A DNA stretch of 64,000 nucleotides, taken from Dactylosporangium siamense. GTDB taxonomy: Bacteria; Actinomycetota; Actinomycetes; Mycobacteriales; Micromonosporaceae. Location of the stretch: the NCBI RefSeq assembly GCF_016862795.1, contig NZ_BONQ01000077.1:124001-188000 (forward strand). The letters are read 5' to 3'. Below, piece after piece: positions 2,299 to 5,736 of the stretch. How positions within the stretch are numbered: position 1 is the first letter of the stretch; each line of letters starts with the position of its first letter. The notes below the pieces were generated by a model. The model saw only the letters and a program-made list of their open reading frames with translations. It searched no databases and was not told the origin of the DNA. The translations under genes were made by a program, and so were the position numbers.

Positions 2299-2308
2299 GG
2301 GGCAGGGG

Positions 2309-2381
2309 CAGGACCGGCCGGAATCGAACCGGCGTCCTCCGCCTTGGTAAGGCGGTGCGTCGACCTCTGCGCTACGGCCCT
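2309..2381 (-). tRNA. tRNA-like gene 1, anticodon ACC
   Basis: The minus strand folds as a 73-nt class I tRNA. It has a 7-bp acceptor with one G-T pair, T8-A9, a 3-bp D stem with A14, G15 and G18G19, a perfect anticodon stem CCGCC/GGCGG with loop TTACCAA, a 5-nt variable loop ending in C48, and T arm GCCGG-TTCGATT-CCGGC. The discriminator is G73 followed by CCC, so CCA is not encoded. Flanking GGC and GCC can lengthen the acceptor stem to 10 bp. Anticodon ACC would read the glycine codon GGU and is very rare in bacteria. The gene starts 12 bp after the ankyrin gene stop. Its arms match those of the copies at 4209 and 4312. Confidence 0.6.
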
Positions 2382-2393
2382 GCCGGTGGCAGC

Positions 2394-4151
2394 CTACCGC
2401 CGCTGGATCAGGTCGCGGAGGAAGGCGAGGTCCTGCCGGCCGGTCCAGATCGGGGCGCGGGCATACGGCCGCTGCGACGTGGCGTGCGGGTCGGCGCCGG
2501 CCCCCAGCAGCGCCCGCACCAGCTCCGGCGAGCCGTAGTCGACGGCCGGGTGCAGCGGCGTCTCACCGTTGAGGTCGCGGGCGTGCACGTCGAGGCCGGC
2601 GGCGAGCAGCCGCGGCAGCAGGTCCACCCCGGTCAGCCACGGCAGCAGGTGCAGCAGCGTCCGGCCGCGCTCGTCGCGCACCCGCGGGTCCAGGCCGCCG
2701 TCCAGGGCGGCGGCCACCGCGGCGGCGTTGCCGTGCAGGACCAGCGTCAGGAATTCGCGGCGCAGGCCACGCATCGGGCCGGGCATCCGCACGGCCGGGT
2801 TCCGCCACCCGTCGTGGGCGGCGACGCAGCCCTGCACCTGGCCGCCGAGCGCCTCGATCATGCGCTCCCGCTGGATCTCGGCCGGCGGGTGTGGCATGTG
2901 GACGGTGCCGTCGCGCAGGAGCACCTCGTGCGTGGCGTGGTTGCACTGCACCCGGACCCGGTCCCGCAGCCCGGGCGGCGGGACCGGTGCGGGAGCCGTC
3001 CCGGCGGGGAACAGCGCCGCGTGCACCAGCGGATGCAGCTGGTCCGGCCGCATCGCCCCCCGGAACAGGGCGGTCAGCTCGGCCGGCCGGCGGGCCAGCA
3101 CGTGCGGCAGCCGCGGCACCCGGTCCAGTTCCAGCCCGAACTCGGCCACCTCGGCGCGCCGTCGCTCGTCGTCGACGCGGTGGTACGGCACCCCGGCGAC
3201 CAGCCGGGCCCGCGGCCGCCCGGTGTCCAGGCGGTCCAGCACGACGCACCGCCCGCGCACGTCGATGCGCACCAGGCCGGCGTGCTCGTCGACGTGGAGC
3301 GGCAGCGCGTCCGGCCGCGGCTCCGGCACCACCTGGCCAGCCTCGCGGCCCGACGGTGTGAACATGAGCCGGTGCTCCGGCTCCTTGGGCACCGGCGCCG
3401 CCGCGCGCACGTCGTCCAGGTGCGCCGCGATCCGGCCGGCGGCCCCGGCCAGCGCCGCGTGCAGGGGCCGCAGCCAGGCCAGCGACCGCTCGACCACGTT
3501 TCGCCTCGCCCGGTCTCGTCCGCCCTCGTCGCGGAACGCGGCCGGGTCGATGCGGTCCCGGCTCCAGCCCGGCTCGAACAGCAGCACCTCGAGGTCGAAC
3601 CCGGCGGCGGCCCACGCGTCGGCGTGCCGGCCGTCCTCGTCGAGCAGCACGGCCCGCTCGACGGCCGCCTCCGGCCCGTCGCCGGTTGCCGGCCGGCCTG
3701 TCGTGGTGAAGAACGGCAACCGCGTAACCCCGCCGCAGCGGGCCAGGAGCTCACCCGTACACCTGGAATCCCAGCGATCGCGAAGGTGCAGCAGAGATGC
3801 GTCCCGCCGGCCGGCGGTGGCGCTGTCCAGGCGCTCGAAGCGCAGCGTGATCCGCTGCGGCGGCAGGTCGAAGCGGTCCGGCGTGCGGGCGACCAGCGCG
3901 TGCACGTCGGGGAACAGCGCCAGCGGCAGGAGCAGCCCCGGGCGCAGCAGGCCGTCCGCGGGGCGCCGCGGCAGGTGCCAGCGCAGCAGGTCCGGCACGA
4001 GATGCCGCAGCTCGTCCTCGACCCGCGCGGCGGTCTCGGCGCCGTGGACCTCCCGGATCGCGGCCAGGTCGAAGTCCACGTCGACGGCCGCGGCGGCGCA
4101 CGCACCACGCCAGTCGCCGGCCAACCGGCGCGCCGTCGCCCGCTCGATCAT
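2394..4151 (-). CDS. Ankyrin-repeat protein embedded in a tRNA-like gene cluster
   Basis: The product has 585 residues. About 455 N-terminal residues match no family I can name; they are rich in Arg, Leu and Asp and have no signal peptide or membrane segment, so the protein is probably cytoplasmic. The last 120 residues hold about three ankyrin repeats (GLDPRVRDERGRTLLHLL, GLDVHARDLNGETPLHPA, GADPHATSQRPYARA), a fold that usually binds proteins. The gene lies between tRNA-like genes 1 and 2 on the same strand: tRNA 1 begins 12 bp after its stop and tRNA 2 ends 58 bp before its start. A tRNA-related role is inferred only from this layout. Confidence 0.75.
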   Translation of the reverse strand: MIERATARRLAGDWRGACAAAAVDVDFDLAAIREVHGAETAARVEDELRHLVPDLLRWHLPRRPADGLLRPGLLLPLALFPDVHALVARTPDRFDLPPQRITLRFERLDSATAGRRDASLLHLRDRWDSRCTGELLARCGGVTRLPFFTTTGRPATGDGPEAAVERAVLLDEDGRHADAWAAAGFDLEVLLFEPGWSRDRIDPAAFRDEGGRDRARRNVVERSLAWLRPLHAALAGAAGRIAAHLDDVRAAAPVPKEPEHRLMFTPSGREAGQVVPEPRPDALPLHVDEHAGLVRIDVRGRCVVLDRLDTGRPRARLVAGVPYHRVDDERRRAEVAEFGLELDRVPRLPHVLARRPAELTALFRGAMRPDQLHPLVHAALFPAGTAPAPVPPPGLRDRVRVQCNHATHEVLLRDGTVHMPHPPAEIQRERMIEALGGQVQGCVAAHDGWRNPAVRMPGPMRGLRREFLTLVLHGNAAAVAAALDGGLDPRVRDERGRTLLHLLPWLTGVDLLPRLLAAGLDVHARDLNGETPLHPAVDYGSPELVRALLGAGADPHATSQRPYARAPIWTGRQDLAFLRDLIQRR

Positions 4152-4208
4152 CTCCGCCGGGACCGCGGCCGGATGCAGTGGCAGTATCGGGAGCTCCTCA
4201 CGTCGGGG

Positions 4209-4281
4209 CAGTGCCGACCGGATTCGAACCGGCGTTCTTCCGTTCCGGAGACGGACGCGACCACCTCTGCGCTACGGCCCT
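4209..4281 (-). tRNA. tRNA-like gene 2, anticodon CCG (arginine CGG)
   Basis: The minus strand gives a 73-nt tRNA fold. The 5' half up to the D loop matches tRNA-like gene 1, and the T arm is GCCGG-TTCGAAT-CCGGT. The anticodon stem is TCCGT/ACGGA with loop CTCCGGA, the loop usual for tRNA-Arg(CCG), including G37. T8, A14, G15, G18G19, C48, T54, T55, C56 and A58 are all present. The acceptor has one A-G mismatch at 3-70. G73 is followed by CCC, so CCA is not encoded. Flanking GGC/GCC could extend the acceptor stem. It lies 58 bp upstream of the ankyrin gene and 30 bp downstream of tRNA-like gene 3. Confidence 0.65.
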
Positions 4282-4311
4282 GCCGCCGGCCACTCTATCG
4301 ACCGTCGGGGG

Positions 4312-4384
4312 CAGTGCCGACCGGATTCGAACCGGCGTCTTCCCGATCATGAGTCGGACGCGACCACCTCTGCGCTACGGCCCT
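4312..4384 (-). tRNA. tRNA-like gene 3, anticodon CAT
   Basis: This is a 73-nt minus-strand tRNA fold that matches tRNA-like gene 2 except in the anticodon arm and variable loop. The anticodon stem is TCCGA/TCGGG with loop CTCATGA. CAT would read AUG, or AUA if C34 is changed to lysidine. G37 is unusual for an A-starting codon, where A37 is normal. The acceptor carries the same A-G mismatch at 3-70. Its first ten bases lie inside the 3' end of the 453-aa gene: T8-A9-G10 is also that gene's TAG stop. Confidence 0.65.
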
Positions 4385-5736
4385 GCCGGCGCCGATCGTA
4401 CCGACATCAGGTGCCGGCCGAGATCGGTCAGCTCGACGGTCAGGCCGGGCTCCGGCGCCATCGCCCACGTGGTGGTGCCGGCCGCGGCCGCGGCGGCCTC
4501 GCGGTCCGGATCCGCGGTGAAGCCGGTGACCGTGACGGCGCCGTGGCGGGCCAGGGTCGCGAGGATGTTGCGGATCGCGGTGCCGGCGATGCGGCGGTAC
4601 AGCTCGGGCTCGCGGCGCGGCAGGTGGCCGGCCTGCTCGGCCAGCAGCCGATCGGTGAGCGCCTGCAGGTCGGCCGGGCCGGCGGTGGCGCCGAGCAGGT
4701 CGAGGAACATCGGCGCCCACGGGGCCAGCCAGCGGCGGAGGGGCTCGGTGCCCTTCTCCGCGTGCAGCGGCGTGATCGGATGGATGAGCACGTCGGCGAG
4801 GTCCGTCCACAGTTCGAGCGCGGCCGGCACCGGCGCGGTCCCGTCCAGGACGGCGTCGACCAGGTCCGCACCCGGCCCCCGCACCGCCCGGCCGCGGACC
4901 AGCTGGACGACGTCGAACTCGAGCCCGGTCTGCCACAGGTTCGTCAGGACCGGCTCGCCGTCCTCCGGCAGGCCCAGCGCGGCGAGCAGGGCGGGCCGGT
5001 CGGCCTTGCGCACCTCGCCGCGACCGTCGACGGCGTGCCCCTCCGGTCCGACCCAGCCGGCGAGCGTGGCGAGGTCCCGCAGCCGGGCGGCACCGTCGTT
5101 CGACACCGCCTTGGCGAGCGCCGCGTCGTCGGTCGGCACGGGACCGGACCTGTCCGGCGCCGGGCGGGTCCGGGCCGGGCGTCCCGGGGGCGCCATCGTG
5201 ACCTGGTCACCGGTGACGAGGACGGTGCCGGTGGCGTGCCGCTCCTGCTCCATCAGGTTGCCGAGCACCTCCCGGCGCTCCTGCGGCCCGCGGGCACTGA
5301 ACCGCGCGGCCCAGGCGCCGACCTCGGCCGGGTCGCCGTCGGGCCGGACGCCGTCGCGGAGCATGGCGGTGAAGATCCGCTTGGTCAGGTCCCACCGGGT
5401 GGTGTCGGCCATCGCCGCCGGGAACTTCGCCGTCAGCCGGTCCAGCTCCTTGAGCAGCGCGGCCGGGCGGGCGCTCGCCGGGTGCAGCCGGCCGGTGTCG
5501 TCGAGAAACCGCAGGAAGTCGCGGAGCGTGTCCAGCCCCCGCTCGCTCAGCTGCCAGGCGTCCACCTGCCCGGGCGCGACGGCGTCCATGAGCAGCGTGT
5601 GCACGTCGCCGCTGCGCCACCGGGTCGGATCGGGCCGCCGCCGCAGCAGGACCTCGATCCGGCCCCGCCGGCCGGCGTCACCCGAAGGCGCCCAGGCGAT
5701 GAAGTCGTCAACGAGCCGCTGCCGCATCCGGGACAT
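4375..5736 (-). CDS. Unrecognised 453-aa protein of the tRNA-like cluster
   Basis: I do not recognise this 453-residue protein. It is mostly predicted helix, with many Asp-Leu and Arg-Leu pairs, a Pro/Gly/Arg-rich linker near residues 176-195, and no signal peptide or membrane segment. The C-terminal 75 residues look like a winged helix, ending in VELTDLGRHLMS, a pattern common where a wing closes with an L-T-x-L-G-R turn. That would suit nucleic-acid binding but is only inferred. The last three codons and the TAG stop lie inside tRNA-like gene 3, so the transcript probably runs on into tRNA 3, tRNA 2 and the ankyrin gene. A tandem repeat lies just upstream of its start. Confidence 0.7.
   Translation of the reverse strand: MSRMRQRLVDDFIAWAPSGDAGRRGRIEVLLRRRPDPTRWRSGDVHTLLMDAVAPGQVDAWQLSERGLDTLRDFLRFLDDTGRLHPASARPAALLKELDRLTAKFPAAMADTTRWDLTKRIFTAMLRDGVRPDGDPAEVGAWAARFSARGPQERREVLGNLMEQERHATGTVLVTGDQVTMAPPGRPARTRPAPDRSGPVPTDDAALAKAVSNDGAARLRDLATLAGWVGPEGHAVDGRGEVRKADRPALLAALGLPEDGEPVLTNLWQTGLEFDVVQLVRGRAVRGPGADLVDAVLDGTAPVPAALELWTDLADVLIHPITPLHAEKGTEPLRRWLAPWAPMFLDLLGATAGPADLQALTDRLLAEQAGHLPRREPELYRRIAGTAIRNILATLARHGAVTVTGFTADPDREAAAAAAGTTTWAMAPEPGLTVELTDLGRHLMSVRSAPAGP

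What the first reader, a model, noticed from the sequence alone, without database searches (positions are those of the whole stretch)
2309..5736. Three near-identical tRNA-like genes interleaved with an ankyrin gene and an unrecognised gene
All five genes lie on the minus strand in the order 453-aa gene, tRNA 3 (CAT), tRNA 2 (CCG), ankyrin gene, tRNA 1 (ACC). The tRNAs share nearly the same acceptor, D and T arms and the same 73-nt length, but differ in the anticodon arm. Spacing is tight (an overlap, 30 bp, 57 bp, 12 bp), so one transcript is likely. Normal tRNA operons do not share bodies and swap anticodons. This looks like a dedicated module, perhaps tRNAs that serve as substrates, sensors or decoys for the two proteins.
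Basis: partly seen in the sequence, partly recalled or inferred. Interest (0 to 1): 0.75.

Follow-up and report, generated by a model that had tools for sequence, protein, structure and literature searches.

The report
tRNA-mimic leaders of ankyrin gene module
Three small genes that look like tRNAs are probably not working tRNAs but members of an actinobacterial family of tRNA look-alikes with their own promoter signals, many of which sit directly in front of ankyrin, LRR and SDR genes of a suspected immune-type system and differ chiefly in the anticodon arm.

Summary
The three tRNA-like genes are real and near-identical outside the anticodon arm. They belong to a family (here 'TLR') found across Actinomycetes. 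Features not used to find them set them apart from ordinary tRNAs. The acceptor stem is extended over positions -3..-1/73-75, covaries, and leaves no room for an encoded free CCA end (all three extra pairs in 121 of 190 distinct TLRs, 0 of 73 ordinary tRNAs of the same genome). A TANNNT box sits about 13 nt upstream in 153 of 172 non-redundant TLRs (shuffled 10.05), so transcription should start at the TLR. Where an ANK, SDR or LRR gene lies within 300 nt (127 of 204), it is on the same strand and in 114 downstream. Full loci read TLR-(SDR)-LRR-ANK-MoxR-DUF2201/vWA, a MoxR-vWA ternary-system layout. The window holds a satellite ANK gene led by two TLRs, with a third behind it; the 453-aa gene is not a conserved part. 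Tandem TLRs never shared a loop (0 of 18). Best reading, inferred: 5'-leader tRNA mimics whose conserved body is a dock and whose anticodon arm is a diversified recognition element, perhaps bait for tRNA-attacking nucleases. Mechanism untested.

The parts
2307..2384 (-). TLR1: tRNA-like RNA, loop TTACCAA (ACC), with 3-bp extended acceptor stem; downstream of the ANK stop codon
2391..2396 (-). -10-like element TAGGCT of TLR1 (overlaps the ANK stop codon)
2394..4151 (-). ANK gene: conserved N-terminal region (no PDB relative found with a Streptomyces homologue), then ankyrin repeats; the start may lie 36 nt upstream (4185-4187 ATA, GTG in the close homologue L084)
4194..4199 (-). Shine-Dalgarno-like GAGGAG between TLR2 and the possible upstream ANK start
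4207..4284 (-). TLR2: tRNA-like RNA, loop CTCCGGA (CCG); leader of the ANK gene
4292..4297 (-). -10-like element TAGAGT of TLR2
4310..4387 (-). TLR3: tRNA-like RNA, loop CTCATGA (CAT, unusual G37); in tandem upstream of TLR2
4395..4400 (-). -10-like element TACGAT of TLR3, inside the 3' end of the 453-aa ORF
4375..5736 (-). 453-aa ORF, no family match; neighbour, judged not part of the conserved module

Best explanation
The three genes encode tRNA-mimicking RNAs (TLRs), not translation tRNAs. SHOWN by sequence: a tRNA fold with an extended, covarying acceptor stem and no encoded free CCA end; a -10-like box at a fixed distance upstream; position directly 5' of ANK, SDR or LRR genes on the same strand in more than half of the TLRs seen; full loci of the form TLR-(SDR)-LRR-ANK-MoxR-DUF2201/vWA; a conserved body with an anticodon arm that differed in all 30 tandem pairs seen. 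INFERRED: transcription starts at the 5' end of the extended stem, so the ANK mRNA starts with TLR2 (and TLR3). The shared body is a docking surface for a common partner (the ANK N-terminal region or a tRNA-handling enzyme). The anticodon arm is the recognition element by which satellite TLR-ANK units sense different insults, plausibly nucleases that attack tRNA anticodon loops, and report to the MoxR-vWA machine encoded elsewhere in the genome.
For: Extension pairs 5/84, 6/83 and 7/82 change on both sides (7/82: CG 41, GC 15 of 58); covariation 0.387 against 0.177 shuffled and at most 0.126 slid. All three extension pairs: 121 of 190 TLRs, 0 of 73 ordinary tRNAs. TANNNT starting at -22..-8: 153 of 172, shuffled 10.05 +- 2.8, at most 20; ordinary tRNAs 20 of 73, scattered. 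Nearest ANK/SDR/LRR within 300 nt: 114 downstream same strand, 13 upstream same strand, 0 opposite, 77 none, of 204; in loci chosen only for a TLR, 35 downstream, 1 upstream, 0 opposite, 52 none of 88 (L164-L243). Operon in Streptomyces and others. Arm below body identity in 17 of 18 tandem pairs of equal length; identical 7-nt loop 0 of 18, identical arm 0 of 30. U33 65/87 and A37 61/87 in well-formed arms; 20/87 loops equal an ordinary tRNA loop of this genome against 9.8 +- 2.7 shuffled. Patchy presence by exact pattern: 78 of 350 family and 17 of 394 class genomes, reversed control 0.
Against: No expression or binding data. 77 of 204 TLRs have none of the three genes within 300 nt, and Streptomyces holds stand-alone classes with no fixed neighbour seen. 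The LRR-leading class has no U33 (0 of 11) and 2-4 stem pairs, so it does not mimic a decoding loop. The exact Trp-arm copy idea failed. Predicted folding gave no sign that the intact TLR gates the ribosome site. ANK homologues without TLR exist: 16 of 62 ANK genes had none within 4 kb upstream, and three plasmid operons of the N-terminal region with MoxR/vWA, plus a fourth unannotated region, have none.
Confidence: 0.42

Rival explanations
1. Autoregulatory leader: the TLR is an operator that the downstream protein binds to control its own mRNA, as aminoacyl-tRNA synthetase operators do (recalled example, thrS). Arm diversity then reflects co-evolution with each paralogous protein, not sensing of attack.
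For: Leader position and orientation, own promoter box, conserved arm in the LRR-leading and part of the SDR-leading class.
Against: Stand-alone TLRs without a downstream gene of these families and tandem arrays of unlike arms before one gene fit less well; no fold-based gating seen.
Confidence: 0.3
2. Accessory or relic tRNAs that are processed and decode, or tRNA remnants with no function.
For: They pass the tRNA model cut-off by a wide margin; many loops have U33 and A37.
Against: Covarying pairing of positions 73-75, promoter box close to the extended stem, no U33 in the LRR-leading class, a stop-type anticodon (TCA) and anticodons not seen among the ordinary tRNAs read here, such as ACC and ATC. 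Compensatory changes argue against decay.
Confidence: 0.12
3. Recombination or integration targets: conserved tRNA-like bodies let TLR-ANK cassettes duplicate and move, and the RNA itself is incidental.
For: TLR-ANK units recur in tandem and as satellites.
Against: RNA-level covariation and the fixed promoter distance point to an RNA product; the exact pattern gave no viral contig.
Confidence: 0.08

Closest known systems
MoxR-vWA ternary conflict systems (Kaur et al. 2020, PMC7159879; extended in PMC8195603)
   Same: A MoxR AAA+ ATPase gene next to a vWA-domain gene and a third component; reported mainly from multicellular bacteria including actinobacteria (passages).
   Different: Third component here is an ANK protein whose N-terminal region has no Pfam match, plus LRR and SDR proteins, and the vWA protein is DUF2201. 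A term search of both texts found 'tRNA' only in a reference title of the first.
Pseudo-tRNA tRNA-Other of Bacillus cereus (PMC3399842, passages)
   Same: A tRNA-shaped RNA that does not serve translation; it bears a Trp anticodon, as one Streptomyces TLR class does.
   Different: It flanks a pathogenicity island and is poorly aminoacylated in vitro. TLRs are a multi-copy family with a covarying extended stem and recurrent neighbours.
Bacterial Y RNA YrlA with Ro60/Rsr (recalled; the RNA repair operon paper PMC7790460 was seen only in a search listing)
   Same: A tRNA-mimic RNA encoded beside a vWA-containing protein (recalled).
   Different: No Y-RNA family match in the window; no TROVE match among the proteins scanned with Pfam.

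Membership tests
Translation tRNA | Cloverleaf fold with T8-A14, G18G19 and T-loop motifs (motifs recalled) | tested here: met
Translation tRNA | 7-bp acceptor stem with unpaired discriminator and 3' end free for CCA | tested here: not met
   positions 73-75 all pair with -1..-3 in 121 of 190 TLRs against 0 of 73 ordinary tRNAs
Translation tRNA | Aminoacylated and used on the ribosome | not testable with these tools
   needs tRNA-seq or a charging assay
MoxR-vWA ternary system | Adjacent MoxR AAA+ and vWA genes with a third component | tested here: met
   met for full loci such as L114, L146, L162, L166, L196, L210; the window itself holds only the ANK and TLR parts, a full set is at G000 contig 154
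MoxR-vWA ternary system | Third component is VMAP, iSTAND, TERNS3 or beta-propeller (from PMC8195603 passages and the Pfam bpMoxR entry) | tested here: inconclusive
   Pfam gave only ankyrin for the ANK protein and its N-terminal region no PDB fold match with E <= 0.001; VMAP and TERNS3 were not compared directly
Bacterial Y RNA | Match to a curated Y RNA family or an Rsr neighbour | tested here: not met
   (Rfam on the window; Pfam on window proteins and ten proteins of related loci)
Pseudo-tRNA (tRNA-Other type) | tRNA fold without translation role | tested here: inconclusive
   fold met and structure departs from tRNA; lack of a translation role is not testable here

The most novel reading that the evidence does not exclude
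A guard-decoy immune module made of RNA and protein: promoter-bearing tRNA mimics form the 5' ends of sensor mRNAs, each showing a different tRNA-like anticodon arm as bait. Cleavage or capture of the bait by an invader's tRNA-attacking nuclease is the trigger that ANK/LRR sensors relay to a MoxR-vWA response.
Probability: 0.2. Interest if true: 0.93.

Novelty: new variant of a known kind. Interest (0 to 1): 0.76.

Why it matters
ARAGORN and Rfam call these RNAs ordinary tRNAs, so a widespread actinobacterial RNA family tied to a suspected conflict system has probably been hidden in genome tables. If the arms are sensors, bacteria diversify an RNA part, not only a protein part, to watch for attack on tRNA, and tRNA mimicry would join the known kinds of defence trigger. 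The family also gives a clean test system for why tRNA-shaped elements sit at mRNA 5' ends.

Tried and rejected
Exact mimicry of the native tRNA-Trp anticodon arm in Streptomyces-type genomes: rejected, the arm pattern occurred only inside the TLR in 5 of 6 genomes and nowhere in the sixth. Ribosome-site gating by TLR folding: mean SD accessibility with the intact TLR 0.396, with shuffled TLR 0.392, p 0.76. With only the 3' half of the TLR it is 0.336 (p 0.023 against intact), but not below a shuffled 3' half (0.361, p 0.24). n = 38 of 64 leaders, those with an SD of 4 or more. Covariance-model census of the order: only 18 candidates per genome were scored, so its 8 of 249 is not used as prevalence. 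Phage origin: only ankyrin repeats of two Wolbachia phage records matched; the exact TLR pattern gave 0 viral contigs. PADLOC: only weak matches to ankyrin and AAA parts. The first AlphaFold model, of the whole ANK protein (pLDDT 68), gave mainly ankyrin/DARPin matches. The N-terminal model (pLDDT 84, pTM 0.81) gave no PDB match with E <= 0.001. The 453-aa ORF was not pursued beyond. Plastid-ycf2 hits on the plus strand are below the gathering score and taken as antisense tRNA artefacts.

Caveats: TLRs were found by body patterns, so body conservation is partly by construction; stem extension, promoter and neighbours were not in the pattern. Related loci are not independent; only the promoter test was thinned for similarity (172 of 203). 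Counts from the list of 204 leave out 9 TLRs with identical context (213 in all). Loci L124-L163 were picked by me: 20 mostly because no ANK hit was listed near them, 20 mixed. The neighbour HMMs were built from proteins of the window and L084-L123.
Full report
WHAT IS THERE. The window lies in a 12.7-Mb genome (G000, contig 77). ARAGORN and Rfam both find three tRNA-like genes on the minus strand at 2309-2381, 4209-4281 and 4312-4384. Their bodies are nearly identical and the anticodon arms differ. Between TLR2 and TLR1 lies a 585-aa ORF with ankyrin repeats at its C-terminal end. A 453-aa ORF without family match precedes TLR3.

ORDINARY tRNAs OF THE SAME GENOME ARE DIFFERENT. The genome has 84 matches to the tRNA model. 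The ordinary ones read by ARAGORN do not share this body. Six genes do: the three in the window and one each on contigs 40, 50 and 154. Contigs 40 and 50 carry an ANK homologue directly behind the TLR, and contig 154 a full locus.

THE PROTEIN FAMILY TRAVELS WITH SUCH RNAs. The ANK protein has matches at E <= 0.001 in 270 of 350 family genomes, many with weak E-values. I fetched 40 stretches of 14-20 kb, one of them for the 453-aa protein. With the window, 35 of 41 hold at least one TLR; missing are L085, L093, L095, L096, L098 and L119. L096 is the 453-aa locus; L119 ends at a contig edge within the operon. Among 62 ANK genes in these loci, 15 have a TLR within 300 nt upstream, 31 within 4 kb, 16 none. 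These loci were high-scoring hits, not a random draw.

FULL LOCUS. Gene calls and Pfam give the order TLR - SDR-type protein with a Cys-rich N-terminal part - LRR protein - ANK protein - MoxR-like AAA ATPase - DUF2201_N/DUF2201 (vWA-like) protein (L114; L146 and L162). In L153 the ANK gene with its own TLR stands before the SDR gene instead. In Streptomyces loci the order is TLR - LRR - ANK - MoxR - DUF2201 (L166, L180, L196, L210, L222, L237). The own genome has a full set on contig 154. The window's ANK gene, with TLR2 and TLR3 in front, looks like a satellite of that system.

DISTRIBUTION. An exact body pattern finds TLRs in 78 of 350 family genomes and 17 of 394 class genomes; the reversed pattern gives none. 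Viral contigs gave none. In the 80 loci given, 32 hold at least one of the five protein families within 8 kb. Most of the rest are stand-alone TLRs of Streptomyces and Lentzea; among 45 such loci listed, no downstream family recurred broadly. Of 40 further family loci fetched around TLRs, 29 hold such a gene. The other eleven were looked through: several lie by a SUKH/SMI1-like protein with ankyrin matches, all below the Pfam cut-offs, or by DUF1304. As a control, in 50 stretches fetched around tRNA matches of the own genome the families appear only at L069, L070 and L071, the TLR-bearing ones.

WHY NOT ORDINARY tRNAs. In 58 distinct TLRs every helix has pairs with compensatory changes: covariation score 0.387, shuffled 0.177, slid at most 0.126. 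The acceptor stem goes on for three pairs beyond the usual seven, over positions 73-75, and these pairs change on both sides. In 190 distinct TLRs, 121 form all three, 34 two, 22 one, 13 none; in 73 ordinary tRNAs none forms three. Where all three form, no CCA can be free at the encoded end.

PROMOTER. In 172 non-redundant TLRs, a TANNNT box starts between -22 and -8 of the first stem base in 153, with a sharp peak at -13; shuffled sequences give 10.05 +- 2.8, at most 20. Ordinary tRNAs of the genome have one in the matching stretch in 20 of 73, scattered. No clear -35 box was found. The box distance places the predicted start at about the TLR's own 5' end. Members of the tandem arrays printed have boxes of their own. 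In the window the boxes are TAGGCT, TAGAGT and TACGAT.

LEADER POSITION. Of 204 TLRs, the nearest ANK, SDR or LRR gene within 300 nt is downstream on the same strand in 114, upstream on the same strand in 13, on the opposite strand in 0, absent in 77. Without removal of identical contexts, the split is: ANK-chosen loci 50 downstream, 9 upstream, 5 none; L124-L163 36, 3, 22; L164-L243, chosen only for the TLR, 35, 1, 52. In 64 leaders with a recognised start codon the gap is 27.5 nt at the median; 38 have a Shine-Dalgarno match of 4 or more. With so short a gap the mRNA should carry the TLR at or near its 5' end; this is inference from layout.

ANTICODON ARM. In 104 distinct variable regions (one more was too long to score), 87 form a 7-nt loop on a good stem; U33 in 65, A37 in 61. 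Twenty of 87 loops equal a loop of an ordinary tRNA of the own genome, against 9.8 +- 2.7 by column shuffling. LRR-leading TLRs are a class apart: 0 of 11 have U33 and 11 of 12 have only 2-3 stem pairs, with a conserved arm. In 30 tandem neighbour pairs no arm is shared; of 18 pairs with comparable loops none is identical, and the arm is less alike than the body in 17 of 18 (mean arm identity 0.54; mean body identity 0.85).

PROTEIN. The ANK N-terminal region (Streptomyces chattanoogensis homologue, 430 aa, 16-sequence alignment) folds with pLDDT 84 and pTM 0.81 and has no PDB match with E <= 0.001. Its first 180 residues or so also match nine plasmid records, where the match stops before the ankyrin part. 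I opened four: in three the protein stands directly before MoxR and vWA genes; the fourth region has no annotation. No TLR pattern or ARAGORN tRNA was found in the four, and Pfam finds no ankyrin in the two proteins scanned. So the N-terminal region goes with the MoxR-vWA pair even where the RNA is absent.

HOW IT MAY WORK. Shown: the RNA family, its stem, its promoter boxes, its place before these genes, its arm diversity. Inferred: leaders that mimic tRNA, with the body as a common dock and the arm as recognition element, in a system laid out like predicted conflict systems. The bait-for-nuclease idea rests on arm diversity, U33/A37 and patchy distribution only. Autoregulation is the main rival.

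LITERATURE. Nine searches of the open library returned no listing that, by title and abstract start, describes this family. Of PMC7159879 and PMC8195603 I saw only passages found by term; 'tRNA' occurs once in the first, in a reference title, and not in the second. PMC10907252 (passages) proposes DGR-diversified antigen sensors in ternary systems, a protein-side parallel. PMC3399842 (passages) is the pseudo-tRNA precedent. Subscription papers and most preprints are not in the library.

Noticed in passing
G000 contigs 44, 14 and 124 (L064, L065, L066): Dense arrays of 12, 10 and 6 extra tRNA genes in the window's genome, many with irregular-looking bodies, distinct from the TLRs; possibly mobile-element tRNA arrays.
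   Followed up: no
L283-L286, about 4949-4976: TLR-less operons of the ANK N-terminal region share another leader: a -10-like box (TACGAT, TAGGAT or TAGGCT) and GTGAGTGCTGATG in all four, followed by CTCAC in three, which could form a hairpin around an ATG.
   Followed up: partly
L137, L139, L160 (family genomes G035, G187, G160): TLRs lie beside a roughly 390-aa protein with SMI1/KNR4 (SUKH) and ankyrin matches below the Pfam cut-offs (Pfam run on L137 and L160 only).
   Followed up: partly
window 4185-4187: The ANK gene appears to have ATA where the close homologue L084 has a GTG start; the listed ATG start is 36 nt further in.
   Followed up: partly
L174, L175, L186, L192, L203, L235: Lentzea TLRs with CCCTCC arms lie 114-115 nt from a 371-aa gene on the opposite strand whose start looks DnaJ-like (recalled motif).
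   Followed up: no
Streptomyces loci such as L182, L200, L215, L226: Stand-alone TLR class with a Trp (CCA) loop on a 6-bp stem, promoter box present, no fixed neighbour seen.
   Followed up: partly
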